A DNA stretch of 64,000 bases from a virus. This document shows, piece by piece, positions 21,367 through 44,846 of this stretch (its first letter is position 1; each line of letters starts with the position of its first letter). The notes beneath the pieces were generated by a model that searched no databases, was not told the DNA's origin, and saw nothing but the letters and a program-made list of their open reading frames with translations. The translations under genes were made by a program, and so were the position numbers. The stretch spans positions 113,649-177,648 of IMG/VR virus record IMGVR_UViG_3300042869_001172; one strand, 5' to 3'.

Positions 21367-21525
21367 ATGGGACGTAAACAAATAAAGTTAGAAGAAAAGA
21401 AAATTAGGATGTCTATCACTATAGACCCTAATATTGAAAAAATTGTTAGAGATAAATCTATTAATTTGTCGTCATTGGTTAATAAATTATTAATAAAGTA
21501 TTTTAGTAATGAGAAAAATATGTAG
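21367..21525 (+). CDS. small ribbon-helix-helix-like protein of a homing cassette
   Basis: A 52-residue basic protein (M-G-R-K-Q-I-K-L, then M-S-I-T-I-D-P, then S-L-V-N-K-L-L-I-K-Y). The layout of one beta strand followed by two helices ending in S-x-L-V-N-K-L is that of MetJ/Arc-type DNA-binding proteins. It overlaps the HNH homing-endonuclease gene by 17 nt. A protein of the same plan (52-53 residues) overlaps the LAGLIDADG gene at 44067 by exactly 17 nt as well. I infer a repressor or DNA-targeting partner of the nuclease. Fold assignment is by pattern only. Confidence 0.6.
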   Translation: MGRKQIKLEEKKIRMSITIDPNIEKIVRDKSINLSSLVNKLLIKYFSNEKNM

Positions 21526-22198
21526 TAAATGTTTAATTGAAAAAGATGTTTGTGAATTTCATTATCATATTAGGGAGAAAGATGGACGATATTATCAATG
21601 CAAAGAATGTCGTAAAATTATTAGTAAGAAGGAATATCATACAAATAGGAAAAATAAAAAGATTGTTATAAATAGTAAAACTTGTTCTATTTGTTTAATT
21701 GAAAAAGGTGTTGGTGAATTTCATAAACATATTAGTAGTAAAGATGGTTATAGGTCTGTCTGTAAAAAATGTCGTAGTGATAAATTTAAATATAATTATA
21801 ATAATTTTTCAGGGTTTTCTGAGACACATAAAAAAAGAGTTAAAAACTATTCGAAAAATAATCATGAAAAACTTAACGAATACTACAAAAAAAGATATAT
21901 TAGGTACCCTCACATATATGCTTGGAGAAGTATGTTAGGTTCGGTTATTAGACGACTTGGCAGTAAAAAAGAGTCATCTACCTACGATATTTTAGGATAT
22001 TCAGCGGTAGAATTAAAAAATCATCTGGAAAATTTATTTACTGAAGGAATGTCTTGGGATAATTGGGGTAAGTGGCATATTGACCATATAATCCCTGTTA
22101 GTAAGTTTGAAAAAGGTTCTGACCCTAAAATTGTGAATTCGTTAAATAATTTACAACCTTTATGGGCTACAGATAATATACGTAAAGGTAATGATTAA
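21509..22198 (+). CDS. HNH homing endonuclease with tandem zinc fingers
   Basis: A 229-residue protein. Two successive fingers, C-S-K-C ... C-K-E-C near residues 4-33 and C-S-I-C ... C-K-K-C near 56-87, are clear internal duplicates. A basic linker follows, then an HNH core with W-H-I-D-H-I-I-P and N-N-L-Q-P-L-W-A-T-D-N-I. It is a relative of the HNH protein at 19307, which has one finger. Its start lies inside the upstream ribbon-helix-helix gene, so the two are coupled. The cassette sits between the 21150 gene and primase with no obvious interruption of either. Confidence 0.8.
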   Translation: MRKICSKCLIEKDVCEFHYHIREKDGRYYQCKECRKIISKKEYHTNRKNKKIVINSKTCSICLIEKGVGEFHKHISSKDGYRSVCKKCRSDKFKYNYNNFSGFSETHKKRVKNYSKNNHEKLNEYYKKRYIRYPHIYAWRSMLGSVIRRLGSKKESSTYDILGYSAVELKNHLENLFTEGMSWDNWGKWHIDHIIPVSKFEKGSDPKIVNSLNNLQPLWATDNIRKGND

Positions 22199-22239
22199 AT
22201 TAATTTGGATAATGGTGTTTTATTCTTATAATTGTGTTT

Positions 22240-23136
22240 ATGGTAGATGATAAAGACATACTTTTAGATATTTTATGTGAAATTTTGGGAGACCCTGAAA
22301 AGACGTATGATTCAAAATTACAATATGGGTATAATTGTCCTGAATGTGGGGTTGGTCAAAAAAAAGGTAATTTGGAAATTTCATTAGAAAAACATTTATT
22401 TCATTGTTGGTCTTGTGATGATGAAAATAATATGCACGGACCTCTGGGTAGATTATTTGATAGATATGGAACTAAAGAACAAAAAAAGATTTATAACTTA
22501 GTAAAACCCGAGGAATTAAAAATTAAAGAATCCAAAAAAACTCAATTAAAACTTCCTGAGGGGTACACCCAATTCAAAGATTCCAACCCAAGATTCATTC
22601 CACACGCGGAGGCTTATAGATATTTAACTTCTCGAGGGATTACGGATGAAATAATTGAGAAATATCAAATAGGTTATACAGTGAGTGGTGAATTTGCGTA
22701 TAGAGTTATCGTGCCATCATTTGATAAAAATAATAAGTTAAATTATTTTGTTGCTCGTTCGTGGGTTAATGGTAGAATGAAATATAAAAATCCAACGGCT
22801 GAAAAAAATCAAATAATTTTTAATGAAAATCGTATTGATTGGTTTAAAGATGTTTATCTGGTTGAGGGAGCTTTTGATGGATTTTTCTTGGATAATTCAA
22901 TAGTGATGTTAGGTAAGCAAATGAGTGATTTATTATTTGAAACTTTATATGAGAAGGCATTGGGTAAAATTATTATTTGTCTTGATGAAGACGCTTTTCA
23001 AGATGGATTAAAATTATATCACGAACTCAATGGCGGTCGATTGTATAATAAAATAAAAATAATTAAACCACCTAAAGATATGGATGTTGCGGACTTAAGA
23101 GGTCAAATTGATGAATATTATTTTGAAATATTATAA
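22240..23136 (+). CDS. DnaG-type DNA primase
   Basis: A 298-residue primase. The N-terminus has a zinc-binding site, C-P-E-C near residue 30 and C-W-S-C near 53-56 (with a preceding His). The TOPRIM core has V-E-G-A-F-D-G near residues 207-213 and D-E-D-A near 246-249. These are the acidic metal-binding motifs that catalyse RNA primer synthesis. It is short relative to bacterial DnaG, lacking a C-terminal helicase-binding domain, as in phage primases. ATG 22240 is preferred over the GTG two codons upstream. It leads the replication and recombination block 22240-30698. Confidence 0.8.
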   Translation: MVDDKDILLDILCEILGDPEKTYDSKLQYGYNCPECGVGQKKGNLEISLEKHLFHCWSCDDENNMHGPLGRLFDRYGTKEQKKIYNLVKPEELKIKESKKTQLKLPEGYTQFKDSNPRFIPHAEAYRYLTSRGITDEIIEKYQIGYTVSGEFAYRVIVPSFDKNNKLNYFVARSWVNGRMKYKNPTAEKNQIIFNENRIDWFKDVYLVEGAFDGFFLDNSIVMLGKQMSDLLFETLYEKALGKIIICLDEDAFQDGLKLYHELNGGRLYNKIKIIKPPKDMDVADLRGQIDEYYFEIL

Positions 23137-23142
23137 GAAATA

Positions 23143-23174
23143 TTTGGAAGTATAAAAAAAATGTTGTTAATTTG
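23143..23174 (+). promoter_or_regulatory. probable host-type promoter, imperfect -7
   Basis: TTTG at 23143-23146, a 20-nt spacer, then TTAATTTG at 23167-23174, one base off TAnnTTTG. It reads into the small gene at 23198. Confidence 0.4.
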
Positions 23175-23197
23175 TACCATAAATAATAAAAATAACT

Positions 23198-23362
23198 ATG
23201 TCAAATACACTTTCAGTTGATAAATCAACATTTTCAAGATTAAAAAACGAGTATCAAAACGCCGTTAATACTTCAAAAGATACTTTCATGTTTGATGGTC
23301 ACGAATTATTAACTAACTACGCAAAATATCTAATTGAGTATTTTACACCAATGTTTAAATAA
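23198..23362 (+). CDS. small hypothetical protein
   Basis: A 54-residue ORF (M-S-N-T-L-S-V-D-K-S) that fills most of the gap between primase and the RecB-like nuclease. It has an ATG start, a plausible promoter and mixed helical composition with aromatic residues near the C-terminus (Y-L-I-E-Y-F). It ends 6 nt before the nuclease gene. No known family is recognised. Confidence 0.5.
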   Translation: MSNTLSVDKSTFSRLKNEYQNAVNTSKDTFMFDGHELLTNYAKYLIEYFTPMFK

Positions 23363-23368
23363 AAAAAT

Positions 23369-24214
23369 ATGATAGAATTAAAAACTATTGCACAAGAAAT
23401 AAGAGAATTAGTCGCTCAAAGACAAAAATCATTGGGATTGACGTTTGAGGAGGAAGAGCACATTTATACAATGAATGGTAAAACTGATTACCCTTCGGTG
23501 TCAAAAGTGTTAAAGAAGTTTTATACTGAGTTTCCTGTTGAGGAGGCGTCCTACACTAAAGCCAAGGGCGACCCACAAAAACAAAAAGAATTACTTGAGG
23601 AGTGGGCAGCAGCGGGACTCTATTCGACCAATATGGGTAGTAGAGTTCATTATGAACTTGAAAAAGAGCTCATCAATAGAAATGGCTCGTATAAAGAAGT
23701 CCGACAACCAATTTTTGAATGTGACAATGTCCAATTATTTAAAAGTGATAATATGATTGTTGCGGGAAAAAAGTTTCTTGATTTGATGGAAGAACGTGGT
23801 GCTGTCTTACTTGATACTGAGATGATATTGGGTGACCCGGAATTGGGGTACGTAGGTCAGCCTGATAAAGCGTGGTTAATTATGAATATTCATCAAAATG
23901 AATTTGGTTTAGTTATTACTGACTACAAGACTAACAAACCAAAAAACTTCCTTGAGACAAGATACACAAAAAGAATGTTGGAACCATATCAAAAACAACC
24001 TGACAATGCGTTGGGGCACTACTTTGTCCAATTACCATTATATGGTAAATTACTAATCAAAATGTTGGAAGGTACTAAATACGAAAATATTAAGTTATAT
24101 GGGTGTATTGTAACTCACTTAAAAGAAGATGCGGAATTTGACGAATATCGGGTTCCGAAAGAAGTTATTACAACAACTTTGGAGATGGATACAAACAAAT
24201 ATTTGGGTAAGTAA
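23369..24214 (+). CDS. RecB/Cas4-like PD-(D/E)XK nuclease
   Basis: A 281-residue protein of the PD-(D/E)XK superfamily. Visible motifs in order: G-S-R-V-H-Y-E-L-E near residues 89-97 (His motif I), E in L-L-D-T-E-M near 152, the catalytic D in G-Q-P-D-K near 169, D-Y-K in V-I-T-D-Y-K-T near 189-191, and a Q-L-P-L-Y motif near 226-230. That order is typical of RecB-family exonucleases used by phages to process DNA ends. It sits between primase and gp47/gp46, suggesting a role in end resection during recombination-dependent replication or in host DNA breakdown. Confidence 0.75.
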   Translation: MIELKTIAQEIRELVAQRQKSLGLTFEEEEHIYTMNGKTDYPSVSKVLKKFYTEFPVEEASYTKAKGDPQKQKELLEEWAAAGLYSTNMGSRVHYELEKELINRNGSYKEVRQPIFECDNVQLFKSDNMIVAGKKFLDLMEERGAVLLDTEMILGDPELGYVGQPDKAWLIMNIHQNEFGLVITDYKTNKPKNFLETRYTKRMLEPYQKQPDNALGHYFVQLPLYGKLLIKMLEGTKYENIKLYGCIVTHLKEDAEFDEYRVPKEVITTTLEMDTNKYLGK

Positions 24215-24232
24215 AAAACTTATTTACCTTTA
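24202..24232 (+). promoter_or_regulatory. probable host-type promoter, imperfect -7
   Basis: TTTG at 24202-24205, a 19-nt spacer, then TACCTTTA at 24225-24232, one base off TAnnTTTG. It reads into the gene at 24253. Confidence 0.4.
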
Positions 24233-24252
24233 TCTCCACTAAATAAATAAAC

Positions 24253-25140
24253 ATGTCAAAAATAGATGAATTAAAAGTTAAGTATTGGTCGTTAAAGATA
24301 GAAACTTTCAATAGATTAGTTAATGGTGATAAAACACCAACAAGAAAATATACCGAATTTTTATTAAAATCTTGGACTCACCGAAATAGTAACGGGTGTG
24401 TTAGAACAATTGATATGTTAATTGATTTGGTTAATCGATTTGATGAGGTATTACCTTATATTCAAGACAAAGACATCTACGATAAAAAATATGGTCATAT
24501 TCCTACTTTAAAAGAAATTGTGGATAAAGCAGAAACTGATAAAGAATTAAAAGGGTTCTGTCGGGAAGAACATGCTGAAGTTTTATATGAAGACGATAAA
24601 GTTCTTTTTATTATTCCAAAAACACATAAAGGTTCATTAAAATATGGTGCGGGAACTAGATGGTGCACTGCATCAAAAAATGACATATCAACATTCAATA
24701 ACTACTCAAAAAATGCTTTACTCGCTTATTTGATTGATAAAACTGATGATAAAACAATATCGTATAGAAAGATTGCTTTTTATATGAAATGGTCAGAGAC
24801 AGGAATTAACAGTCCTGTCGTTATTTACAATGCTAGTGACAATACTATTGATGATAAATCAATAATTAGATATGGTTGGGATGAAGAATTACTTTTTAAA
24901 TTGATGACAATTTATCGAGTTAGATTTATAACTTATAAGAAAATTAAAGATTCTGTTGACGCTATTAATGCGTTTAGTCGTACATTGAAGAATTTAAATT
25001 TCGATTTGTTAAAAGATAGTTTGGAAAAACTTGAAGAATCGGTAGAACCTTCGTATATTTCTAATCTAAAGGAAAACATTGATGGTTTTCTTAAAAAACT
25101 TAATACAAAACAATATGGAATTACAACAACCGAAAATTAA
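24253..25140 (+). CDS. G-T-R-W-C-T-A family protein
   Basis: A 295-residue protein. Its centre, residues about 110-200, holds the family core: L-Y-E-D-D-K-V-L-F-I-I-P, then Y-G-A-G-T-R-W-C-T-A near 133-142, F-N-N-Y, a hydrophobic L-A-Y-L-I-D strand and a later basic strand. Two other proteins here (45783, 53043) share this core, and a PcfJ-like protein (47536) has a similar Cys-centred arrangement. The invariant W-C suggests a catalytic cysteine, but no function is established from sequence. Unlike the other two it has no capsid-targeting-like N-terminus and lies in the early-type replication block. Confidence 0.6.
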   Translation: MSKIDELKVKYWSLKIETFNRLVNGDKTPTRKYTEFLLKSWTHRNSNGCVRTIDMLIDLVNRFDEVLPYIQDKDIYDKKYGHIPTLKEIVDKAETDKELKGFCREEHAEVLYEDDKVLFIIPKTHKGSLKYGAGTRWCTASKNDISTFNNYSKNALLAYLIDKTDDKTISYRKIAFYMKWSETGINSPVVIYNASDNTIDDKSIIRYGWDEELLFKLMTIYRVRFITYKKIKDSVDAINAFSRTLKNLNFDLLKDSLEKLEESVEPSYISNLKENIDGFLKKLNTKQYGITTTEN

Positions 25141-25351
25141 TTTAAAAGAGTGTCCAACGATAAAATGTGAGTCTTGTGATGGAATTTACTTTAGAGAGGT
25201 AATCTTCCTAAAGAGAGTCCCAAAACTAATGACAGGTTCAACGGAAGACACTACAGTACCGTTCCCAATTTACAAATGTGATTCTTGTGGACATATAAAC
25301 AAAGGGTTTAATCCATTTGAGGAAGAAGAAAAAATTTTAATTAAAGAATAA
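25115..25351 (+). CDS. zinc-ribbon protein
   Basis: A 78-residue protein starting M-E-L-Q-Q-P-K. Two C-x-x-C knuckles, C-E-S-C near 18-21 and C-D-S-C near 55-58, suggest a zinc ribbon. The ATG at 25115 is preferred over a start 36 nt upstream because that leader lies inside the previous gene. It overlaps the previous gene by 26 nt and the gp47 start by 1 nt, so it belongs to the gp47/gp46 operon. Function unknown. Confidence 0.55.
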   Translation: MELQQPKINLKECPTIKCESCDGIYFREVIFLKRVPKLMTGSTEDTTVPFPIYKCDSCGHINKGFNPFEEEEKILIKE

Positions 25352-26136
25352 TGATAAACAGAATTATACATTTCTCTGATTTACACCTCAAACTATTTAA
25401 AGACCACGATTTATACCGTGAAATTCTTCAATTAGCACTGAACGAGTGGAAAACATTACAACCGGACAGAATTACCTTCACCGGAGATTTACTACACTCA
25501 AAAAATCAACTAACGCCTGAAGTAATTGAGGTTGCGTCTTGGTTATTGACCGAATGTGCTAAGATTGCGAAAACTGTATTGATTGCGGGTAATCATGATG
25601 CTCTTATTAATAATAATGATAGATTGGATAGTTTAACCCCGATTATTTCTAACTTAAATAACCCTAATATTGTTTATTATAAAGATAGGGGGATTTATGA
25701 AGATGAGAATGTGTCTTGGTGTGTATATTCACAATTCCAAGGAAACATTCCTCCGGAAATTGATACTGCGACTGGATTTAAAATAGGGTTATTTCATGAC
25801 CCGGTTGTAGGATTAACTACGGATTTAGGGTTTGACTTTGGTTCTCATGCATACGATATTGAAAAATTTAATGGGCTAGACCTTATTCTATGTGGAGATA
25901 TTCACAAACGTGCGACCTTTAATATCCCAAATGGGAAAAGAGGTGTTATGATTGGGTCAACAATACAACAAAATTTTGGTGAGAGTGTTGGTAAACATGG
26001 ATACGGAGTTTACGACATTGATACTGATAAGTACTCTTTTGTTGATTTACCTAACTCAAAACCATATCTTAAATTTTCGATAGACTCGTTTGACTGTATT
26101 GAAAAAGGAACTGAAAAACTTATGAATAATGGATAA
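25351..26136 (+). CDS. gp47: gp47/SbcD/Mre11-like recombination nuclease subunit
   Basis: A 261-residue calcineurin-like phosphoesterase. Metal-binding motifs in order: F-S-D-L-H-L near residues 8-13, G-D near 46-47, G-N-H-D near 80-83, an F-H-D strand near 149-151, and G-D-I-H-K near 184-188. With gp46 (28326) it should form an Mre11-Rad50-type complex for DNA-end processing in recombination-dependent replication and host DNA degradation, as in T4. The two subunits are separated here by five small genes. Confidence 0.85.
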   Translation: MINRIIHFSDLHLKLFKDHDLYREILQLALNEWKTLQPDRITFTGDLLHSKNQLTPEVIEVASWLLTECAKIAKTVLIAGNHDALINNNDRLDSLTPIISNLNNPNIVYYKDRGIYEDENVSWCVYSQFQGNIPPEIDTATGFKIGLFHDPVVGLTTDLGFDFGSHAYDIEKFNGLDLILCGDIHKRATFNIPNGKRGVMIGSTIQQNFGESVGKHGYGVYDIDTDKYSFVDLPNSKPYLKFSIDSFDCIEKGTEKLMNNG

Positions 26137-26683
26137 CAAGATTTACGAATACATAAGAAATGGTATTACAATTGGTGGTAATCCAACTGATGGGTATAAG
26201 GTTTTTACAATTCCAACTCAATGGTTTCATATTGATAGTTTACATCAATTAACTCCGGAAACTTTTGAAAGAGAAATTAAAAAACAAAAAGAACACGATG
26301 AATTAACTTCTGAGATATTCAAAGAAGTTCAAAAAGAAATTGACCAAGAGATTCTAAATCAATTACGAGGTGGTGAACCGAATCCGGATATTATTCCGAT
26401 GAATACAACAGATAGGTTATTTCACACATTTTTGGATACTCCTGACCCGGATGCTGACCCCGATTTAATTTGGGATAAATGGCAATTTATTGATAAATTA
26501 TTATTTGACGATGACTTCTACCAAAAGTGGGGTGGGAATTGTTGTGAGGAATTGACTTACGAAGAAAGATATAGGAAATGGTTTGGTAATAACTATCAAA
26601 CTGGGATGCAATATACACCAACTATCGAACCTGATTGGGATAATGATTATTATGAGCCAACACCTAAAAGAAAATTAAAATGA
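26129..26683 (+). CDS. hypothetical acidic protein
   Basis: A 184-residue protein overlapping gp47 by 8 nt and the next gene by 4 nt. It is acidic and aromatic-rich, with a helical middle (E-R-E-I-K-K-Q-K-E-H-D-E) and a C-terminal half full of D, W and Y. No membrane segment and no known motif were seen. It belongs to the recombination operon by position only. Confidence 0.55.
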   Translation: MDNKIYEYIRNGITIGGNPTDGYKVFTIPTQWFHIDSLHQLTPETFEREIKKQKEHDELTSEIFKEVQKEIDQEILNQLRGGEPNPDIIPMNTTDRLFHTFLDTPDPDADPDLIWDKWQFIDKLLFDDDFYQKWGGNCCEELTYEERYRKWFGNNYQTGMQYTPTIEPDWDNDYYEPTPKRKLK

Positions 26684-27198
26684 ATATCAATCTTGAACTA
26701 ACCTCCGGAGAACACAAGGACTTATTAAGTTATTGTAAACTTAATAAGTTTAACCCTGAAGAGATTATTAAGAAATGTTATTCAGAAGGATTTTCAATTG
26801 AGAAGTACGGACTATTGTCAGGTTCGGGGAATGTTTTTGAAAAAGAAGTTATCAAAGAAGTTATCAAGTATGTTGAGGTTCCTGTGGTTGAAGAAAAAGA
26901 AGTTGTCAAGATTGAATATGTTGAGATTGAGAAACTTGTTGAAGTGATAAAAGAGGTTCCGATAGAAAAGATAGTTGAGGTAAATAAAGAAGTTATTGTT
27001 GAAAAAGAGACATCCGACAATAAATTAAAACTTAAATTAGATGCTCTCCAAAACACAGTTGAAAAATTAAAACTTGATAATATTGAGAAGGACCGAACAA
27101 TAAAAGAATATGAGAAAACAATTCAAGATATTCAAAAATATAATGAAGGAACCAAAGCGATGTATTTGAAAGGTTCAAATTTAGATAATAAAATTTAA
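26680..27198 (+). CDS. coiled-coil protein with Val-Glu repeats
   Basis: A 172-residue protein. After a helical N-terminal domain of about 50 residues come imperfect V-(E/P)-V-x-x-(E/K) repeats near residues 55-108, alternating hydrophobic and charged residues as in an extended beta or coiled rod. A leucine-zipper-like coiled coil follows (L-K-L-K-L-D-A-L-Q ... near 112-150). Such V-E-K repeats are common in phage and bacterial scaffold-like proteins. Possibly an oligomeric partner of gp46/gp47; not established. Confidence 0.55.
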   Translation: MNINLELTSGEHKDLLSYCKLNKFNPEEIIKKCYSEGFSIEKYGLLSGSGNVFEKEVIKEVIKYVEVPVVEEKEVVKIEYVEIEKLVEVIKEVPIEKIVEVNKEVIVEKETSDNKLKLKLDALQNTVEKLKLDNIEKDRTIKEYEKTIQDIQKYNEGTKAMYLKGSNLDNKI

Positions 27199-27214
27199 AA
27201 AAAAAATAGAAAAT

Positions 27215-27559: not shown

Positions 27560-27560
27560 G

Positions 27561-28088: not shown

Positions 28089-28124
28089 CTTAGAAAAAAT
28101 AAACATTAATAAATAAAAACAATT

Positions 28125-28319: not shown

Positions 28320-28325
28320 TAAACT

Positions 28326-30698: not shown

Positions 30699-30715
30699 TG
30701 GGGGACTTTTTTTTG
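30683..30715 (+). terminator. strong intrinsic terminator after gp46
   Basis: AAAAGTCTCCC and GGGGGACTTTT pair around a 6-nt loop, followed by TTTT. The left arm overlaps the last codons of gp46, and the hairpin closes the recombination operon. Confidence 0.8.
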
Positions 30716-30725
30716 TTTTATCAAA

Positions 30726-37952: not shown

Positions 37953-37954
37953 TT

Positions 37955-38200: not shown

Positions 38201-39254
38201 CATGGATTCATCAGCTAATTTATTTAAAAAAAGTTTGGAAAAGGCCTATACCAGTCCGGGGATGTCATTAAATAGTGATACAATGAAAGATATAACAAAA
38301 TACAAACAATCATTCAAAGAGAATGACGATGAAGGAGAAAAAGAAACAAAATATTTAGACATTCAAGATATGATACCTTTATTAAGAAAACAACTCATGA
38401 AAGGTACTAAGGTTGACCAAGAACAAAAAAAAGAAAGGGCTAAATCTAAAGGGGAACCTAATGAAGCTACTGGCTCAGGCTCATCAGGGGCTTATTCAGC
38501 TCCAATGTTTTCTGGGGAAGAACCTAATTTAGATAAAGTTGAAACAAAGGAATCTCCAAATGGACGTATAAGCCCTATTGGGTTTTCTGATGAATATATT
38601 AAGAAAAGTAATTCTGAGAAAAAAGGAGTTACTGAGGACCTTGGGCGATGGTTTAAAGAAAAATGGGTTGATGTTAGTAAAAAAGTTGATGGTAAACATC
38701 CTCCTTGTGGGAGAAAAGATGCTGACGGTAAGTCATACCCTAAATGTAGACCATCTAAAAAAGTATCCAAAGATACTCCAAAAGTCGTATCATCCTATGA
38801 TAAAGATGAGAAAGAAAAAATGACTCAACAAAAAAGAAGAGCGGAGAGAAAAAACCCAAAAATTGGTAAAGGTAACAAACCAACCATGACTCATTATGAT
38901 GAGTCAATCAATGTTAAAGAACAAATTGAAAAGGTCGAAGCAACAGAAGCGACAGGTTCAGGTTCAAGTGGTGGTTATGAGAGTCCCGCTATGTGGGCAA
39001 AATCGACTAAGAAAAAAGATTGGGGACCAAGTAGAAAGACTCAAATACCTGGTGGGGGTTTTGTTAAAGTTAAGAAAAAGTGTACTAAGTTCCCATATTG
39101 TAACCAAGGGGATATCAACGCACTTAAAATAACTAAAAATGAATCAGTTAAAGAGGCTATCAAACAAGTTGCAAGTAAAATGGGGGTTAATGAAAACATT
39201 ATTATAACTATTTTGGAACACGAATACGAAAAAGTTAATAAAAGACACAAATAA
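38193..39254 (+). CDS. Lys-rich protein with DUF5872-like segment, candidate head protein
   Basis: A 353-residue basic, mostly disordered protein. Two copies of E-A-T-G-S-G-S-S-G-(A/G)-Y lie near residues 90-100 and 251-261. Near residues 149-190 is a segment resembling DUF5872: E-K-W-V-D-V, P-C-G-R, then Y-P-K-C-R-P-S-K. The C-terminus is helical. Composition (Lys, Gly, Ser) suggests nucleic-acid or scaffold binding. Adjacent genes carry capsid-targeting-like motifs, so a head-internal role is possible. Not established. Confidence 0.55.
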   Translation: MRNMDSSANLFKKSLEKAYTSPGMSLNSDTMKDITKYKQSFKENDDEGEKETKYLDIQDMIPLLRKQLMKGTKVDQEQKKERAKSKGEPNEATGSGSSGAYSAPMFSGEEPNLDKVETKESPNGRISPIGFSDEYIKKSNSEKKGVTEDLGRWFKEKWVDVSKKVDGKHPPCGRKDADGKSYPKCRPSKKVSKDTPKVVSSYDKDEKEKMTQQKRRAERKNPKIGKGNKPTMTHYDESINVKEQIEKVEATEATGSGSSGGYESPAMWAKSTKKKDWGPSRKTQIPGGGFVKVKKKCTKFPYCNQGDINALKITKNESVKEAIKQVASKMGVNENIIITILEHEYEKVNKRHK

Positions 39255-39257
39255 AGA

Positions 39258-39264
39258 TATTTAT
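39258..39264 (+). promoter_or_regulatory. late-type promoter box TATTTAT
   Basis: GATATTTATT context; the box lies 16 nt before the ATG at 39281. Confidence 0.55.
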
Positions 39265-39280
39265 TAAATAAAATACACGA

Positions 39281-40408
39281 ATGGATAATTTTAAAAATCA
39301 TATTGATAAGTTAGTTTCAAAAGTACTTAATGAGGAAATTGAAAGTAAAGTTAAACAAATCACCCAAGAGATGAGTGGGGAATGGACTGAAATTGAAATG
39401 GGAGAAGGTCTTAAAGGTGGTCAAAAGAAACTTGATGTTGCAAAACCAAAAGGTAAAATAACAGGGGCTGATTTTAAAAAACTTAGAAAAACTAAGGAAT
39501 CTGAAGTTAGTAAGAAATATGGTGGTAAATACGGTATGGGAGAACAAGAAACAGAAGAAGGAAACGCTTTTTCAGGGGCTTTGGCAGATGCAAAGAAAAG
39601 CGGTAAAGATTCTTTTGAAGTTGACGGTAAAAAATATTCGGTTAAAGAAAATAAAGGGTCGTTGAAATTAACTGAAAATGAGTTAATAGATATGATTGAA
39701 AAAATAGTAATGGAACAGAAAGTTAAGGATATTGATGAGAAAGAAAATATTAGTAAAAAAACACCTCAAGGATTAAAAGACACTGATAGAGTTTTAACAC
39801 AAAATAAAAAGGTAAATGATGACCACACAAAGGAAGTTGTTAAAAAGATGAAAGAATATCTTAAAGATATGACTAAAGCGGATTACAATGAGAATCCTGA
39901 AGATTTCCCACGAAGTAATTATGATATTGACAAAGATGAAAAGGTTATGAAATATAATCCATCGGATGCGGTTGAAGAATATATTGAAGCGTTTTCATAT
40001 CCTGGTATGACAAATCTTGTTTATGATGAAATTAAACCGGATGATGAAAAGATAGATAAATACCTTAAGGGTGACTCAACAACTGGAAACGCTGTAACAG
40101 ATAAAGATGGTAAGGCTTTGGGTAATGTTACTAAAAGTAAAGTTGGGGATAGATTTAAAAAGAACTATGATGAAAACTTATATGGGGCGGAACAAATGAA
40201 CGGTTCGTATAAAAGAGTGCCACAACCTGTAGATGTTGCTGGTGAAAAAACTGAAAGTGGTTCGTTAAGTTCAAAAAAAGGTTCAGTTGCTAAGGCTAAT
40301 AGTATTTTAAACAAACTCGAATCAACTGAAAACAAAAAAGACAAAATTGTTTCTGAAGAGATGGCTAAGATGAAAAACTTAATCGGGTACAATAGAAAAA
40401 CACAATAA
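39281..40408 (+). CDS. candidate capsid-packaged protein with repeated targeting-like motif
   Basis: A 375-residue Lys/Glu/Asp-rich protein. The N-terminus (I-D-K-L-V-S-K-V-L-N-E-E-I) is an amphipathic helix ending in acidic residues. A second motif near residues 128-146, L-T-E-N-E-L-I-D-M-I-E-K-I-V-M-E-Q, is nearly the N-terminus of the LysM protein at 59422. Both resemble T4 capsid-targeting or prohead-protease sites. A late-type box lies 16 nt upstream. Low hydrophobic content suggests a disordered internal head or scaffold protein. All of this is inference from pattern. Confidence 0.55.
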   Translation: MDNFKNHIDKLVSKVLNEEIESKVKQITQEMSGEWTEIEMGEGLKGGQKKLDVAKPKGKITGADFKKLRKTKESEVSKKYGGKYGMGEQETEEGNAFSGALADAKKSGKDSFEVDGKKYSVKENKGSLKLTENELIDMIEKIVMEQKVKDIDEKENISKKTPQGLKDTDRVLTQNKKVNDDHTKEVVKKMKEYLKDMTKADYNENPEDFPRSNYDIDKDEKVMKYNPSDAVEEYIEAFSYPGMTNLVYDEIKPDDEKIDKYLKGDSTTGNAVTDKDGKALGNVTKSKVGDRFKKNYDENLYGAEQMNGSYKRVPQPVDVAGEKTESGSLSSKKGSVAKANSILNKLESTENKKDKIVSEEMAKMKNLIGYNRKTQ

Positions 40409-40436
40409 AAATTCACATTTCGAATGATTATACTAT

Positions 40437-40471
40437 ATTCTCCATAGATGACCTCTATGGAGAATTTTTTT
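40437..40471 (+). terminator. intrinsic terminator that spans the next ORF's ATG
   Basis: A perfect 12-bp stem (40437-40448 with 40454-40465), a 5-nt loop and seven T residues. It ends the 39281 gene. The ATG at 40448 and the ATG at 40457 of the next ORF both lie within it. Confidence 0.8.
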
Positions 40472-40915
40472 AATTATATGACCAAGACAATACCAAAAGA
40501 CGAAATAATAATTTGGTTTAATATACATAATATGTATTATGAAAAAATCGAATTATATGGTGACATATTTAAATCACTAAATTATATTATTGTTGGGACT
40601 TATATGGGAGATGAGCACCGTGAAACTAAAATTATCTTAACTAAAGAAGATAATGAAAATCATTTTGCATGGTGTTGGATTAAAATGATTGATGATTTTC
40701 GTAAAGAAAATATTATAATTGATGAGTATGGTGAACATAGAGACTATTTTATATCTTTTTTCCATGACACTTTTTATAATCAATCAGATAAAAAAGTTCG
40801 AGAGTCTATTGATACTTTTTTAATAGATATTTTTAATGTTGATAAAACTTTTGTTAAACCTGATTTAGATATATTAACTGAATTTTATAAAATACTCCAA
40901 AGGTATGTTGATTAA
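40448..40915 (+). CDS. hypothetical protein, start within a terminator hairpin
   Basis: A protein of up to 155 residues (M-T-S-M-E-N-F-F-N-Y-M). Mixed alpha/beta, with aromatic N-terminal half (I-I-W-F-N-I-H-N-M-Y-Y) and W-C-W-I-K-M near residue 75. Starts are possible at 40448, 40457 or 40478. The first two lie in a 12-bp terminator stem, so translation probably depends on read-through, or uses 40478. No family recognised. Possible regulation by the hairpin is discussed under findings. Confidence 0.5.
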   Translation: MTSMENFFNYMTKTIPKDEIIIWFNIHNMYYEKIELYGDIFKSLNYIIVGTYMGDEHRETKIILTKEDNENHFAWCWIKMIDDFRKENIIIDEYGEHRDYFISFFHDTFYNQSDKKVRESIDTFLIDIFNVDKTFVKPDLDILTEFYKILQRYVD

Positions 40916-40996
40916 AAAAAAACCTTATTGGTATTTACACCAGAGTAAAAAAACTTAATATTCCTCTATAACAATAAACAAAATAACTTTTTAAAA

Positions 40997-41182
40997 ATGG
41001 AAACATTAGAAAAAATCAAAGCGTTGACAGAACAATTATCAGTAGACGCGACAAAATTCTATAACGGAAATAAAAGTGCTGGTACAAGAACTAGAAAATC
41101 CGCTCAAGAATTAAAAACCTTACTTCAAGAATTTAGAATTGAGATACTTGAACATAGTAAAAAAGGGGATGTGAATGCATAA
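40997..41182 (+). CDS. histone H1-like (Hc1-type) protein
   Basis: A 61-residue helical protein. The pattern of acidic N-terminal helix, D-A-T-K-F-Y, then a glycine/basic turn (N-G-N-K-S-A-G-T-R-T-R-K) and Q-E-L-K-T-L-L-Q-E-F-R matches the histone H1-like Hc1 family found in Bacteroidota and Chlamydiae. Those proteins bind and compact DNA. A phage copy may condense its genome or alter host nucleoid. It overlaps the next small membrane-protein gene by 8 nt. Confidence 0.65.
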   Translation: METLEKIKALTEQLSVDATKFYNGNKSAGTRTRKSAQELKTLLQEFRIEILEHSKKGDVNA

Positions 41183-41360
41183 TATTGAAACAATATATCT
41201 TTTTATATTTGTGTTTACAATATTGGTGGTGTTAAAAAACATCACAAAGTTTATAAGAGCCCTGTTATCATCAGAACCAAAACTATTGGTTTATAATAAT
41301 AGGGAACTTATTTTCCTTGGATTATCATTAAGTTATTTAATTACATACATATTACAATGA
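41175..41360 (+). CDS. small membrane protein
   Basis: A 61-residue protein with two hydrophobic helices near residues 6-22 and 44-60, joined by a short basic stretch, so a hairpin topology. It overlaps its neighbours by 8 and 4 nt. No known family. Confidence 0.5.
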   Translation: MHNIETIYLFIFVFTILVVLKNITKFIRALLSSEPKLLVYNNRELIFLGLSLSYLITYILQ

Positions 41361-41815
41361 GTTTTTATAAAGAATTAGCGCCATTTGTGCAATACATACA
41401 TTCAATAAGAAAATTAGAGAACTATTTGAGTTTCGACATGGTATTTCCAACTAAATGGTCATTACCTAAAAGTATAATTGAAGAGGGGCAATCAATTTCA
41501 TTTAATGTTGAGAACCAAAATTCAAAAGGAATAACTTTTGTTTCTCAGATTAATGAGAATGATATTTCAACGATGTTGATTAAAATTGCTAAAATAATTA
41601 AATTGAACAAGGAAAGAGAGTTGAAAGAACAACTTTTTAAACAGACAATTGACCAATTAAAACAAACATTTGAGAAAAATGATTTGGATAAATTACAAAA
41701 TCTTTATTTTGATTTTGAAACGGATACCACACCAAATTTAGATTTAGATGAGCAAAACGGACAAGAGCCAACAACTATTGAATTGGTTGACGAGCGAGAA
41801 GAAGAAGGACGATAG
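41357..41815 (+). CDS. hypothetical protein
   Basis: A 152-residue protein: an N-terminal alpha/beta domain (F-V-Q-Y-I-H-S-I-R-K-L) then a long charged helix and an acidic C-terminal tail (E-E-E-G-R). It overlaps the previous gene by 4 nt and the next by 68 nt. Function unknown. Confidence 0.5.
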   Translation: MSFYKELAPFVQYIHSIRKLENYLSFDMVFPTKWSLPKSIIEEGQSISFNVENQNSKGITFVSQINENDISTMLIKIAKIIKLNKERELKEQLFKQTIDQLKQTFEKNDLDKLQNLYFDFETDTTPNLDLDEQNGQEPTTIELVDEREEEGR

Positions 41816-41942
41816 ACAACTTGAAAATAGTAAGAAACGACTTATTTGGGAGATTAAAAATATAAAGAAAGAGGATATGTTTCCTCAACCTAAAAAAATA
41901 ACATTATGGACGAAAATAAAAATATTGCTCTTGGGGAGTTAG
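41748..41942 (+). CDS. small basic protein
   Basis: A 64-residue basic protein ending in a hydrophobic helix (L-W-T-K-I-K-I-L-L-L-G). It overlaps the upstream gene by 68 nt in another frame and the next by 37 nt. Real-gene status rests on its position in a tight chain of overlapping genes. Confidence 0.45.
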   Translation: MSKTDKSQQLLNWLTSEKKKDDRQLENSKKRLIWEIKNIKKEDMFPQPKKITLWTKIKILLLGS

Positions 41943-42136
41943 AAAAATTGGCGTTAATTGCTGAGTCATGTCAATCTATTTTTAGTGGGAAAGGGACGAT
42001 AGTCTTTGAATTACCAATCGGTGAGTACACTAGCGTAATTAATCATTTTAGAGAAATAGATAGGCATCACAAACAATTTTCCTTAGACATTTCCGGAACC
42101 GAATTCCATTTTATTTTGACTGAAGTGGAGAAGTAA
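41906..42136 (+). CDS. hypothetical protein
   Basis: A 76-residue alpha/beta protein (M-D-E-N-K-N-I-A-L-G) with a clear central strand (G-K-G-T-I-V-F-E-L-P). It overlaps tail to tail (26 nt) with the minus-strand gene that follows. No recognised family. Confidence 0.5.
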   Translation: MDENKNIALGELEKLALIAESCQSIFSGKGTIVFELPIGEYTSVINHFREIDRHHKQFSLDISGTEFHFILTEVEK

Positions 42137-42755
42137 ATTTTCGATATAATATTTTCTTATCAATACCATAAGATTCTAACACACTAAAAAGGTATTTTCT
42201 TTGAGCGGAGGAGTGGTCTTTAACAAAAAGACAATCTCCTCTTTTTATTTTAAAAAAGTACGATGAAAGACTATCGATAAATCTTAACGATTCGAATTCC
42301 GATTTTAAAGTGAAAAGGTTAATTTTCTCATCCTCTTGGATAATAATTTTATTATTGAGACTTGATATCATTTTTAACCCATCTCCTTTTAAATAAGTTT
42401 TAATTAGTTGTTGAGTAGTTATTTTTTTGTTTTTAGTTAAGTCATAAACCCTTTCTTCTTTTTTATAATACCCAATATTAAATAATGTCATCCCATCCTC
42501 TTCAAGTTTAACTTTAGAACTTCTACCATATTCGTCAGTCATATATACAGGGATAAATTGATTATCGCTCAACTCAATTAAACCTAATTCATATCTGGTG
42601 TCCATACCATTTTCAATTTCAACATTAAAAATGACATCATTTGATTCTTTTAATAATTTGTCGTAATATTGTTTAGCTCGTGAAAAGGTTACGAACTTAT
42701 TTATTATTTTTTTACGTTTCTTATTTTTAAACAAGACAACAACATAGTTTACCAT
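42111..42755 (-). CDS. hypothetical protein divergent from dnaJ
   Basis: A 214-residue protein starting M-V-N-Y-V-V-V-L-F. The longer frame from 42803 would enter dnaJ, so ATG 42755 is chosen. The start codon is only 2 nt from that of dnaJ (42758). Alpha/beta composition with a basic N-terminus and several strands; no catalytic motif. Any promoter must lie inside dnaJ. Confidence 0.5.
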   Translation of the reverse strand: MVNYVVVLFKNKKRKKIINKFVTFSRAKQYYDKLLKESNDVIFNVEIENGMDTRYELGLIELSDNQFIPVYMTDEYGRSSKVKLEEDGMTLFNIGYYKKEERVYDLTKNKKITTQQLIKTYLKGDGLKMISSLNNKIIIQEDEKINLFTLKSEFESLRFIDSLSSYFFKIKRGDCLFVKDHSSAQRKYLFSVLESYGIDKKILYRKFTSPLQSK

Positions 42756-42757
42756 AT

Positions 42758-43681
42758 ATGAAAGATTACTACAAAATTTTAGAAGTTGAAGAGAAAGCTT
42801 CACAACAAGATATAAAAAAGAGTTATCGTACTCTATCTAAGAAATATCACCCGGATATAAATCCTGAGGGTGGAGAACAATTTAAAGATATTGCTGAAGC
42901 TTATGATATAATAGGTGATGTGCAAAAACGGGCGCAATATGACCAAACTAAGAATAATCCATTTGCAAATACCGGAGGTCATACATTTGAAGACATATTT
43001 AATCAAATGTTTAATCGAGGTAACGCTCAAAGAACTCGAAGAAAATCTGTACCTGATAAACTAGTTAAAGTGTTTATAGACCCCATTGAATCATATCAAG
43101 GGATTGAAAAGAAAATACAATATTTGAAGGATATCCAATGTGGGGGATGTAGTGGTAATGGTGGACAACAACAAACTTGTACCGGATGTAACGGTGCCGG
43201 ATTTCAAATTAAAACATTTGGAACCGGATTTATGGTTCAACAAATAAGACAATCATGTACGAGTTGTGGTGGTCGAGGTTATACTTTAGTCCATAAATGT
43301 CAAACTTGTAATGGACATGGAACTAAGAGTGAAATGAGTACCGTTAATTTTAAATTACCTAAAGGGGTTGATAGTGGTCAATTTTTAAAATTAGAAAACT
43401 TTGGGGATTTTAAAAATGGAGAAATTGGTGACTTAGTTATTCAAATAGAATTAATTGAAAAAGATGGGTTTGAAAAAATGAATAATGACTTAATTTATAG
43501 TCTATTTCTTGACTTAGAAGGAATAAAAGACGATAAATTAAAAGTACCTCACCCGGATGGTGAATTAATGATAGGTCAACCTAAAATATTTGATACGTCA
43601 AAACCATTAAGACTGAAAGGTAAGGGATATAATGGCGGTGATATGTATGTTAAACTAAATGTGAAATTTGAAAGAAATTAA
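42758..43681 (+). CDS. dnaJ: DnaJ (Hsp40) co-chaperone
   Basis: A 307-residue type I Hsp40. The J domain (residues 1-65) has the H-P-D motif at 31-33. A short Gly/Phe region follows. Then come cysteine repeats C-x-x-C-x-G-x-G near residues 127-195, binding two zincs, and a substrate-binding C-terminal domain. It recruits host DnaK for folding or disassembly; no DnaK gene is in the window. Length is shorter than bacterial DnaJ (about 375) because the C-terminal part is reduced. Divergent from 42111 by 2 nt. Confidence 0.85.
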   Translation: MKDYYKILEVEEKASQQDIKKSYRTLSKKYHPDINPEGGEQFKDIAEAYDIIGDVQKRAQYDQTKNNPFANTGGHTFEDIFNQMFNRGNAQRTRRKSVPDKLVKVFIDPIESYQGIEKKIQYLKDIQCGGCSGNGGQQQTCTGCNGAGFQIKTFGTGFMVQQIRQSCTSCGGRGYTLVHKCQTCNGHGTKSEMSTVNFKLPKGVDSGQFLKLENFGDFKNGEIGDLVIQIELIEKDGFEKMNNDLIYSLFLDLEGIKDDKLKVPHPDGELMIGQPKIFDTSKPLRLKGKGYNGGDMYVKLNVKFERN

Positions 43682-43682
43682 T

Positions 43683-43874
43683 ATGGAAACAGTTGAAGGA
43701 AAAATTATTGAAGAGAACGAAGTTAATCGAGATGGTGGAGGATGTTCATCTTGTAAACAAAAAGGTATTAAAAAGGGGCAAATGGGGTCAGTTATTTTAG
43801 GAATTTATATTATGGGTGCTGCGGTTTATGGTACTATTGTGATGATAAAAAATTTATTATCGTTGTTTAATTAA
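43683..43874 (+). CDS. small membrane protein with C-S-S-C motif
   Basis: A 63-residue protein. Residues about 21-27 carry C-S-S-C-K-Q-K, then a hydrophobic helix near 37-57. The ATG at 43683 falls 1 nt after the dnaJ stop, so it probably shares its transcript. The longer frame from 43668 is less likely. Function unknown. Confidence 0.5.
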   Translation: METVEGKIIEENEVNRDGGGCSSCKQKGIKKGQMGSVILGIYIMGAAVYGTIVMIKNLLSLFN

Positions 43875-43909
43875 TTTACTTTTTAACGCACTTTTACTAT
43901 ACTTTGTGA

Positions 43910-43916
43910 TATTTAT
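43910..43916 (+). promoter_or_regulatory. late-type promoter box TATTTAT
   Basis: TGATATTTATAA context; the box is 5 nt before the ATG at 43922. Confidence 0.55.
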
Positions 43917-43921
43917 AATAT

Positions 43922-44083
43922 ATGGGAAAGATAGGACGACCTAATAAAGAAGACAAAGATAAAAAAGTTAAATATGGGATAAGTATTGACCGATATCTTT
44001 TCGATAAAATGAAAAACGAGGGGGGTAGTATCTCCAAGTTTATTCAAAAATTAGTTAAAGAGTATTATGAGAAAATTGACTGA
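43922..44083 (+). CDS. small ribbon-helix-helix-like protein of a homing cassette
   Basis: A 53-residue basic protein (M-G-K-I-G-R-P-N-K-E ... Y-G-I-S-I-D ... S-I-S-K-F-I-Q-K-L-V-K-E-Y). Strand-helix-helix plan as in MetJ/Arc repressors. The same plan and length occur at 21367. It overlaps the LAGLIDADG gene by 17 nt, exactly as the other overlaps its HNH gene. A shared control or targeting part of two mobile cassettes is inferred. Confidence 0.6.
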   Translation: MGKIGRPNKEDKDKKVKYGISIDRYLFDKMKNEGGSISKFIQKLVKEYYEKID

Positions 44084-44846
44084 AATTGATTGTAGTCGTA
44101 TTTGTGATGATTATTTGTTAGGTTTGTCCTATAATTTATTATCAGAAAAATATAATATTTGTACTTGGAGTATTGGTAATGTTTTAAGAAAAAATAATAT
44201 TAAAAGTCGAATCCGTAAACATAGTTGTAATGAAAATTATTTTGAAAAAATAAATAGTAATGAGAAGGCGTATTGGTTAGGTTTGTTATTTGCGGACGGG
44301 TGTGTTAGAAAACGAAAACAATTTAATGGGAAACACAAACAAGGTGGAATTGTTGGGATATCATTAAAAAATGGGGATGAATATTTGTTAGAGAAATTAA
44401 TTATTGACTTGGAGTCAACATATAAACTCACTAAACAAATTAAAGATGAATTTTTAAGTTATAAGTTAGAAGTTAATAGCTCAAAAATGACCGATGATTT
44501 GATTAATTTAGGTTGTGTCCCAAATAAAAGTTTAGTATTATTACCCCCTAATTTAACTGATGATTTTATCCCTCATTTTATTAGAGGTTATTTTGACGGT
44601 GACGGGTCTATTGGTAGATACAATGGAAGACTTAAATTTAGTTTATTGGGGACAAATGATTTGTTAAGTTGGATTTTAAATTTTTTTAAAAATAAAGGAA
44701 TGAAAACAACCCCCAAAATTAGTAAAAATAAAAATATCCATTCAATTCAAGTAAATTCAAAATCGGATATTGAACTAATTCAAAATATTTTATATACTTC
44801 ATCTAATGATTATTACCTAAAAAGAAAAAAAGAAAAATTTAAATAA
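44067..44846 (+). CDS. LAGLIDADG homing endonuclease
   Basis: A 259-residue protein. An N-terminal helix-turn-helix-like part (residues 1-50) precedes two LAGLIDADG motifs: W-L-G-L-L-F-A-D-G-C near residues 70-79 and I-R-G-Y-F-D-G-D-G-S near 173-182. The acidic residue in each binds the catalytic metal. Two motifs in one chain indicate a monomeric enzyme that cuts a long target. It ends 1 nt before the Dam-type gene, so the cassette looks inserted between dnaJ-region genes and this methyltransferase. Confidence 0.8.
   Translation: MRKLTEIDCSRICDDYLLGLSYNLLSEKYNICTWSIGNVLRKNNIKSRIRKHSCNENYFEKINSNEKAYWLGLLFADGCVRKRKQFNGKHKQGGIVGISLKNGDEYLLEKLIIDLESTYKLTKQIKDEFLSYKLEVNSSKMTDDLINLGCVPNKSLVLLPPNLTDDFIPHFIRGYFDGDGSIGRYNGRLKFSLLGTNDLLSWILNFFKNKGMKTTPKISKNKNIHSIQVNSKSDIELIQNILYTSSNDYYLKRKKEKFK

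What the first reader, a model, noticed from the sequence alone, without database searches (positions are those of the whole stretch)
21367..44846. Twin mobile cassettes: ribbon-helix-helix protein plus homing endonuclease with the same 17-nt overlap
At 21367-22198 and 43922-44846, small basic proteins of 52 and 53 residues (strand-helix-helix plan) precede homing endonucleases of unrelated families, HNH and LAGLIDADG. In both, the nuclease ATG lies inside the upstream gene with exactly 17 nt overlap, and a TATTTAT box sits 4-5 nt before the first ATG. This suggests a reusable leader module that can join different nucleases, with the RHH protein acting as repressor, target-finder or antidote. 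The overlaps, box spacing and lengths are seen directly; the RHH fold and the module idea are inference.
Basis: partly seen in the sequence, partly recalled or inferred. Interest (0 to 1): 0.8.

Follow-up and report, generated by a model that had tools for sequence, protein, structure and literature searches.

The report
Swappable nucleases behind phage regulator gene
Giant uncultivated phages carry small insertable cassettes in which a tiny, probably DNA-binding protein gene stays put while unrelated DNA-cutting enzymes are swapped in behind it, perhaps so that the cutter comes with its own control switch.

Summary
The window is part of a 177.6-kb virus record; G001 (309 kb) is near-identical, G002 related. 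At three insertion sites sampled without using the small protein, 229 informative loci give 49 small gene plus overlapping nuclease, 2 small gene plus broken nuclease, 1 nuclease alone, 4 nuclease remnants, 173 neither. At the window's second site one small-protein clade pairs with LAGLIDADG (21 loci) or HNH (3 loci). In the best pair, leader and small gene are 95-100% identical up to the nuclease ATG, unrelated after it. So the overlap is an exchange seam; its usual lengths (11, 14, 17, 20, 23 nt) fit the nuclease start supplying the other frame's stop, and 17 in both is coincidence. TATTTAT belongs to a general promoter-like box; ACTTT upstream of it marks cassette leaders (24/27 against 8/82 controls). 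Best reading: a ribbon-helix-helix autoregulator controls whichever homing nuclease is plugged in, laid out like C-protein operons of restriction systems. The pairing was reported in 2025 (moraphages); I found no report of nuclease exchange.

The parts
21337..21341 (+). ACTTT element of cassette 1, starting 18 nt before the start of the box
   Evidence: sequence; enrichment in cassette leaders
21355..21362 (+). ATATTTAT promoter-like box, 4 nt before the ATG (leaderless arrangement, inferred)
21367..21525 (+). small ribbon-helix-helix-like protein, 52 aa (P0001)
21509..21525 (+). 17-nt overlap: nuclease ATG inside the small gene; exchange seam by comparison with other cassettes
21509..22198 (+). 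HNH / endonuclease VII-type homing nuclease, 229 aa (P0002)
22234..23136 (+). DNA primase, downstream flank of cassette site 1
   Evidence: primase-anchored scan
42758..43681 (+). DnaJ, upstream neighbourhood of cassette site 2
   Evidence: DnaJ C-part within 2.9 kb upstream in 69 of 75 D12 loci
43884..43895 (+). TAACGCACTTTT: element conserved in the D12-site leaders, with the common ACTTT core
43909..43916 (+). ATATTTAT promoter-like box, 5 nt before the ATG
43922..44083 (+). small ribbon-helix-helix-like protein, 53 aa (P0003)
44067..44083 (+). 17-nt overlap: nuclease ATG inside the small gene; exchange seam by comparison with other cassettes
44067..44846 (+). LAGLIDADG homing nuclease, 259 aa (P0004)
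44848..45699 (+). D12-class adenine methylase, downstream flank of cassette site 2
   Evidence: D12-anchored scan
19307..20107 (+). third HNH nuclease of the same family (266 aa), without small protein and without box: comparison case

Best explanation
Each cassette is a self-contained, presence/absence homing element: a promoter-like leader, a 50-55-residue ribbon-helix-helix (RHH) regulator, and an overlapping homing nuclease that can be exchanged. Shown by comparison: cassettes are present in some phages and absent in others at fixed sites; close RHH genes with their leaders stay with a site while nucleases of unrelated families are replaced at, or within four codons of, the nuclease start codon; RHH genes are under purifying selection. 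Inferred: the RHH protein binds the ACTTT element beside the ATATTTAT box and autoregulates the operon, so that nuclease is made in a burst when the cassette meets a naive genome and is then shut down; the overlap keeps nuclease translation at or below RHH translation. In layout this is a nuclease-independent control head like the C-protein/endonuclease operons of restriction-modification systems.
For: Site-anchored samples chosen without the RHH gene, 229 informative loci: RecA/UvsX-like site 18 RHH+nuclease, 1 nuclease alone, 57 neither (of 76); primase site 7, 1 nuclease remnant, 70 neither (of 78); D12 site 24, 2 RHH with broken nuclease, 3 nuclease remnants, 46 neither (of 75). A box 3-8 nt before an ATG follows uvsX in 17 of 18 RHH loci and 0 of 58 others (p 5e-16). 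Seam: L424 (LAGLIDADG) against L444 (HNH): RHH proteins 50 of 52 identical, DNA 0.95-1.0 per 20 nt from -40 to +140, then divergent right after the nuclease ATG; L116 (HNH) against L105 (NUMOD3/TnsA-like): same up to the fourth nuclease codon. An unoccupied counterpart of one G001 cassette exists in G002. ACTTT within 35 nt before the box in 24 of 27 non-redundant cassette leaders against 8 of 82 other leaderless box promoters (p 3e-14); at 18-19 nt exactly 21 of 27 against 2 of 82. All 31 intact primase and D12 cassettes have ACTTT within 50 nt of the ATG. Strand position 3 is K/R in 92 RHH-leader combinations, 88 with ACTTT, and N/T/S in 3, none with ACTTT (p 2.5e-4; comparison chosen after seeing the table). 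RHH median dN/dS 0.137 over 1163 pairs. Pfam/PHROG matches are to RHH antitoxins and Arc-like repressors.
Against: No binding, expression or cleavage data. RHH is dispensable for some nucleases of this phage: G001 95138, 196219, window 19307 and the nuclease-like ORF at G001 188739 lack it, and 188739 keeps an ACTTT leader. L260 is a nuclease at the uvsX site with neither RHH nor box. RHH without intact nuclease occurs in 4 of 90 unique RHH-anchored cassettes (L106, L168, L180, L211) and in L461/L462. ACTTT is not unique to cassettes: it is on the + strand in 19 of 38 unique unoccupied D12 upstream regions (7.4 by shuffling), apparently in the methylase's own promoter. Leader similarity follows the rest of the RHH protein (partial 0.51) more than the DNA-facing strand (0.37), so descent explains much. 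No palindrome was evident by eye. Fold comparison failed. In PvuII a similar overlap does not couple translation (PMC2997769, abstract).
Confidence: 0.5

Rival explanations
1. Address factor: the RHH protein binds the insertion site and recruits whichever nuclease is encoded behind it, so that unrelated nucleases can home to the same place.
For: All 8 RHH groups (90% identity) with two or more members keep one upstream neighbour where it is known, and wider clades keep the downstream neighbour by eye. Two unrelated nuclease families share one site behind one RHH clade. ACTTT is enriched upstream of unoccupied D12 methylases (19 of 38 against 7.4 shuffled).
Against: In-place exchange of nucleases by recombination between homologous RHH and homologous flank explains the same pattern. 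The clade-specific form CGCACTT is in 0 of 38 unoccupied D12 regions of 90 nt and 1 of 38 within 600 nt. ACTTT on the + strand is not enriched at unoccupied uvsX (3 of 42, 3.7 shuffled) or primase sites (6 of 48, 7.7 shuffled). One nuclease occupies the uvsX site without RHH (L260).
Confidence: 0.16
2. Toxin-antitoxin-like pair: RHH protein neutralises the nuclease protein by direct contact, as CcdA does with CcdB.
For: CcdA is the commonest Pfam match (24 of 42 members); regulator-then-effector order with overlap resembles such operons; antitoxin roles are discussed for moraphages (PMC12619734, section 13). Intact RHH beside a broken nuclease (L461) and no intact nuclease beside a broken RHH was noticed.
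Against: Nucleases of unrelated folds sit behind near-identical RHH proteins, hard to square with one specific contact surface. P0001 matches only CcdA positions 3-39 of 71. The last residues are encoded by the overlap and differ with the nuclease. Several nucleases of the family have no RHH.
Confidence: 0.11
3. Expression tag only: the RHH gene is a passenger that supplies a leaderless promoter and a translation start, with no regulatory role.
For: The box is a general promoter-like element of the phage; the nuclease starts inside the small gene; some nucleases carry the box directly.
Against: Purifying selection on RHH, conserved residues of the RHH strand, and a leader element rarer at other leaderless box promoters.
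Confidence: 0.13

Closest known systems
Moraphage CcdA/HicB-like antitoxin plus PacI-like putative homing endonuclease modules (PMC12619734, Arch Virol 2025; abstract, section 13 and search passages read)
   Same: Association of a small antitoxin-like gene with putative homing nucleases in several copies in jumbo phages with predicted Bacteroidota hosts, genomes up to 307 kb; regulation proposed there by analogy with I-TevI. G001 and G002 are about 309 kb and encode Hc1; the window encodes DnaJ.
   Different: In what I read, that paper gives one nuclease group and no overlap, promoter, seam, site occupancy or exchange between nuclease families. Membership of this phage in the moraphages was not tested; Hc1 also occurs in LR756502.
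C protein / restriction endonuclease operons (PvuII type; PMC2997769, abstract read)
   Same: Small regulator gene overlapping by about 20 nt the start of a nuclease gene, one promoter for both, control of a dangerous nuclease on entry into a new cell.
   Different: C proteins activate and are, from memory, helix-turn-helix; no cognate methylase belongs to this cassette; the nucleases are homing-type and exchangeable.
I-TevI autorepression in phage T4 (PMC2988022, search passages and section 13 read)
   Same: Homing nuclease expression controlled at an operator overlapping its phage promoter.
   Different: In T4 the nuclease itself is the repressor; here a separate small protein is proposed.
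T4 free-standing nucleases overlapping an upstream ORF (segC 20, segF 11, mobA 23, mobC 24 bp; PMC2988022 section 13)
   Same: Overlap lengths of the same size; low-level initiation near the upstream stop is suggested there.
   Different: In the passages I read the upstream ORF is not described as a regulator or as part of a mobile cassette.
Rhizobium phage 16-3 p099/p100
   Same: Small gene annotated as transcriptional regulator overlapping an endonuclease VII-like gene (47 nt).
   Different: 69-aa regulator of a different, helix-turn-helix-like sequence type (my reading); one case.

Membership tests
Ribbon-helix-helix DNA-binding proteins | strand-helix-helix plan in a domain of about 45-50 residues | tested here: inconclusive
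   AlphaFold2: P0001 extended N-terminus, helices 21-30 and 34-47 (pLDDT 80, pTM 0.43); P0003 helices 24-32 and 37-49 (pLDDT 76, pTM 0.43); no strand assigned in the monomer models
Ribbon-helix-helix DNA-binding proteins | profile match to a known RHH family | tested here: met
   At E up to 0.01: CcdA 24/42 (best E 1.6e-5), BrnA 5/42, RHH_3 4/42; PHROG Arc-like repressor families 11, 5 and 1 of 42. P0001 is below Pfam's cut-off and P0003 had no Pfam match; P0003 matches an Arc-like PHROG only at E 0.036
Ribbon-helix-helix DNA-binding proteins | fold match to a solved RHH structure | tested here: inconclusive
   Foldseek gave one meaningless match for P0001 and no chain for P0003; VIA-align nothing
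Homing endonucleases (free-standing) | known nuclease family | tested here: met
   HNH (weak Pfam, strong PHROG), LAGLIDADG, NUMOD3/TnsA-like N profiles. The G001 266860 partner matches NUMOD motifs and PHROG homing endonuclease; Pfam GIY-YIG only at E 0.44
Homing endonucleases (free-standing) | present/absent polymorphism at a fixed site | tested here: met
   50 of 229 loci hold an intact nuclease (49 with RHH), 6 hold broken or remnant nuclease, 173 neither
Homing endonucleases (free-standing) | cleavage of the unoccupied site and gene conversion | not testable with these tools
   needs enzyme or coinfection assay
Type II toxin-antitoxin modules | antitoxin with toxin-binding C-terminal region | tested here: inconclusive
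   P0001 matches CcdA positions 3-39 of 71 only; tails are short and differ with each nuclease. Another way of binding is not excluded
C-controlled restriction-modification operons | cognate methylase as part of the element | tested here: not met
   methylases next to some cassettes are present without the cassette too (D12 site; cytosine methylase directly after uvsX in e.g. L255)

The most novel reading that the evidence does not exclude
The RHH protein, not the nuclease, gives the element its address: it marks one genomic site, and interchangeable nucleases of unrelated folds are plugged in behind it at the start codon, a nuclease-independent homing system.
Probability: 0.13. Interest if true: 0.88.

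Novelty: new variant of a known kind. Interest (0 to 1): 0.62.

Why it matters
Homing nucleases are usually treated as single-gene selfish elements. Here the stable part of the element at a site is a small regulator-like gene with its leader, and the cutting enzyme is replaceable across superfamilies at a defined seam. That makes the question of how selfish nucleases keep their expression in check directly testable, and suggests a layout shared with restriction systems: regulator first, overlapping nuclease second. The natural nuclease exchanges at one site also give ready-made pairs for testing which protein determines the target.

Tried and rejected
TATTTAT as a cassette mark: rejected. Identical 17-nt overlap as a signature: rejected. 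Palindromic operator: looked for by eye in printed leaders, nothing consistent; no test was run. Free recombination of RHH with nuclease within the HNH family: not supported (Spearman 0.60 over pairs of 70 cassettes; no pair with RHH 98% or more and nuclease under 45%, none with RHH under 60% and nuclease over 70%). It is the middle of the HNH nuclease that varies (mean identity 0.39, lowest 0.20, in 157 pairs with RHH at least 95% identical).

Fold comparison: nothing usable. Solved-structure sequence search: only designed or spurious matches. Bacterial genomes with the RHH profile: 111 candidate stretches, none confirmed. Phage records collection: no RHH relative except a weak hit (E 0.4) in the 735-kb record LR756501 and its duplicate LR756503.

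Generality: three huge-phage records (LR756501, LR756502, LR745206) hold 7 clear HNH relatives, 3 with a 49-51-aa ORF overlapping by 14 or 17 nt; a weaker match in LR745206 (E 2e-4) was left out. One of these three small proteins matched an Arc-like family (E 0.0012), the other two nothing convincing. Of 11 loci found with P0002 in viral contigs, 6 have the RHH gene, 4 more distant ones do not, 1 begins at the contig end. Six HNH relatives in smaller phages show no small annotated gene overlapping the nuclease start (picked from 40 listed of 128 records; in AP-16-3 a 61-aa gene ends 29 nt before it, not examined). Four LAGLIDADG relatives show none either (picked from 40 listed of 175 records).

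Limits of the counts. One search covers 234 loci: those of the RHH scans (80, 19 and 80 loci, the two 80s capped and best-first, partly the same loci) and everything fetched before, so it favours close relatives. The three site-anchored scans keep the best 80 loci each; 4, 2 and 5 loci with too little flank were dropped. My first classification missed broken genes; a later tblastn check and reading moved 6 loci (L375, L422, L426, L427, L461, L462) out of 'neither'. Two 'neither' primase loci (L381, L382) show a nuclease match about 1.1 kb further upstream. A weak RHH-like hit in L423 (34% over 41 aa) I judged spurious. In one search, 2 of 84 leaders without a box at 3-9 nt were dropped, controls come from G001 and G002 only, and two of the eight ACTTT controls are themselves nuclease or nuclease-like genes (266848, 188739). 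In one search, 4 of 99 RHH-leader combinations were dropped for lack of a recognised box. The dN/dS uses 42 codons of proteins starting MGRK, MGRH or MGRR, pairs 60% or more identical, dS under 1.5. Two further seam pairs are less clean than L424/L444: L441/L428 (44 of 54 residues) and L473/L482 (40 of 54). 'uvsX' rests on a Pfam RecA match below cut-off (E 1.7e-4) and my reading.

Prior description was searched; only PMC12619734 described the pairing. I read its abstract, section 13 and passages, not the whole text or supplements. PMC10853773: passages seen, not used.


Full report
What is there. The window is bases 113,649-177,648 of a 177.6-kb virus record. G001 (309 kb) is near-identical over the ORFs compared and G002 (308.6 kb) is related. 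Both encode Hc1, and the window a DnaJ, traits described for the moraphages, jumbo phages with predicted Bacteroidota hosts (PMC12619734); membership was not tested, and Hc1 also occurs in LR756502. The two cassettes are as described: 52-aa small protein, 229-aa HNH/endonuclease-VII-type nuclease, then primase; and 53-aa small protein, 259-aa LAGLIDADG nuclease, then a D12 adenine methylase.

The small proteins form one family. An iterated profile finds 8 members in G001 plus G002 (5 and 3; two of the G001 ones are identical to the window's), with a wide gap to the next hit (E 1e-24 against 0.11). 8 of 8 are followed by an overlapping nuclease: 6 HNH, 2 LAGLIDADG; overlaps 11, 11, 17, 17, 17, 20, 20, 23 nt. 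A more distant RHH-like protein at G001 266860 overlaps by 14 nt a nuclease that I read as GIY-YIG (Pfam GIY-YIG only E 0.44; NUMOD3 8e-9; PHROG homing endonuclease 1e-19). A mechanical screen for a 40-60-aa ORF overlapping a long ORF by 8-30 nt returns 9 cases in G001, 6 of them these pairs, and 5 in G002, 3 of them these. Members match RHH families weakly but repeatedly (CcdA 24 of 42, BrnA 5, RHH_3 4, Arc-like PHROGs 11, 5 and 1), and models show two helices after an extended N-terminus. The RHH fold is probable, not shown.

Wider set. Three RHH-anchored scans with the earlier loci give 90 unique small-protein/partner pairs; 88 have a partner ORF and 84 of 90 overlap by 11, 14, 17, 20 or 23 nt. 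Partners of the 88: 75 HNH-type, 8 LAGLIDADG, 2 NUMOD3/TnsA-like, 2 cytosine methylases with an intein, 1 without Pfam match. The two methylases, the last partner (L168) and one truncated nuclease (L211) are cases where the RHH gene stands without an intact nuclease.

Site-anchored, RHH-independent samples. I used neighbouring genes as bait: the RecA/UvsX-like gene, the primase and the D12 methylase. After a first classification and a check for broken genes: uvsX, of 76 informative loci 18 RHH plus nuclease, 1 nuclease alone (L260), 57 neither; primase, of 78, 7 RHH plus HNH, 1 nuclease remnant, 70 neither; D12, of 75, 21 RHH plus LAGLIDADG, 3 RHH plus HNH, 2 RHH plus broken HNH (L461, L462), 3 nuclease remnants, 46 neither. 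Together 49, 2, 1, 4 and 173 of 229. In 69 of 75 D12 loci the DnaJ gene lies within 2.9 kb upstream, including 49 of the 51 first called unoccupied, so the context is the same. At uvsX a box 3-8 nt before an ATG accompanies RHH in 17 of 18 loci and is absent in 58 of 58 without RHH. Full, broken, remnant and empty states side by side are what a homing life cycle would leave (inference). Between G001 and G002 there is one unoccupied counterpart (G002 219104-219126) and one site holding different cassettes.

The seam. In the RHH-anchored set, all 8 RHH groups (90% identity) with two or more members keep one upstream neighbour where it is known, while the nuclease behind them changes. L424 and L444 at the D12 site have RHH proteins identical at 50 of 52 residues and DNA identity 0.95-1.0 per 20 nt from -40 to +140; identity collapses right after the nuclease ATG, where one continues as LAGLIDADG and the other as HNH. 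L116 and L105 at uvsX show the same for HNH against NUMOD3/TnsA-like, with the first four nuclease codons still shared. With the join at the nuclease start, the RHH frame runs into the new nuclease until the first stop in that frame. This explains the usual overlaps, all 2 modulo 3, and the different RHH tails; the shared 17 nt in the window is coincidence. Within the HNH family RHH and nuclease otherwise travel together (Spearman 0.60); where RHH is at least 95% identical the nuclease's middle averages 0.39 identity against 0.86 for the last 80 residues.

Control region. ATATTTAT occurs 103 and 123 times in G001 and G002, often 4-7 nt or 12-20 nt before an ATG: a promoter-like box, in the first case implying leaderless mRNA (inference). 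RHH leaders have ACTTT within 35 nt upstream of it in 24 of 27 non-redundant cases against 8 of 82 controls, at 18-19 nt in 21 of 27 against 2 of 82. Site clades extend it in their own way (TRACGCACTTT at D12, ATGATACTTT at the primase). The third strand residue, which would face DNA if hydrophobic residues alternate inward (inference), is K/R in 92 of 95 combinations, 88 with ACTTT; in the 3 with N, T or S it is absent (a comparison chosen after seeing the table). Strand and leader correlate at 0.37 given the rest (p 0.001), but the rest correlates at 0.51 given the strand, so descent contributes. RHH genes are under purifying selection (median dN/dS 0.137, 1163 pairs). Against: ACTTT also stands in 19 of 38 unoccupied D12 upstream regions (7.4 shuffled), apparently in the methylase's own promoter; it is not enriched at unoccupied uvsX (3 of 42) or primase (6 of 48) sites.

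Mechanism. The simplest account is an autoregulated nuclease operon: RHH made first from a leaderless start, nuclease from a start inside the RHH gene, RHH acting back on the promoter, giving a burst in a naive genome and quiet afterwards. Binding, sign of regulation and coupling are inferred. The layout matches C-protein operons, where the abstract of PMC2997769 gives an overlap of about 20 nt but reports that translation there is not coupled. A site-addressing role for RHH is the boldest reading left open: one RHH clade per site with unrelated nucleases is what it predicts, though in-place recombination predicts it too, and the clade-specific CGCACTT is missing from unoccupied D12 regions (0 of 38 in 90 nt).

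Relation to print. Pairing of CcdA/HicB-like genes with PacI-like homing nucleases, and the regulation idea, were published for moraphages in 2025 (PMC12619734, section 13). I found no description of nuclease exchange across families, the start-codon seam, the leader element or site occupancy in searches. Hence: new variant of a known kind.

Noticed in passing
G001 (L036-L052) and G002 (L053-L069): Genome-wide promoter-like box ATATTTAT with two spacings, 4-7 nt and 12-20 nt before ATG, some copies just after terminator-like sequences; suggests many leaderless mRNAs in this phage type.
   Followed up: partly
window 19307-20107: A third HNH nuclease of the same family without RHH gene and without box, 6 nt after an upstream ORF that ends at 19300.
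   Followed up: partly
L106 and L180, uvsX locus: Cytosine methylase interrupted by an intein (Pfam intein and LAGLIDADG_3 in L106) in the two cassette lineages where the RHH gene has no nuclease behind it; at L105 and L116 the methylase ORF is short (337 and 354 aa) and a nuclease is present.
   Followed up: no
G000:60024-60482 and G000:92746-92910 (outside the window): LAGLIDADG_3 matches inside open frames of 962 and 813 aa, perhaps inteins, not examined.
   Followed up: no
L186 2986-5540: Two different RHH-nuclease cassettes flank one primase gene, one on each side.
   Followed up: partly
L235 1495-2365 (LR756501, 735-kb phage): 54-aa RHH-like ORF (CcdA only E 0.07) followed after 1 nt by a nuclease matching phage homing-endonuclease families: similar pairing in a very different huge phage.
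   Followed up: partly
L461 2394-2988: Intact RHH gene followed by a frame-broken HNH nuclease before the D12 methylase: a decaying cassette; L422, L426, L427 and L375 keep only nuclease remnants.
   Followed up: partly
L442-L466 group, 90 nt upstream of the D12 methylase: Unoccupied methylase loci share a conserved upstream stretch with ACTTT twice in some, looking like a promoter of another type.
   Followed up: no
L002 1299-2259 (Rhizobium phage 16-3): Small transcriptional regulator gene overlapping an endonuclease VII-like gene by 47 nt.
   Followed up: no
G001:188739 (+): Nuclease-like ORF starting METK (my reading, not profile-tested) with box and ACTTT leader directly before it and no RHH gene: possible RHH-deletion derivative.
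   Followed up: no
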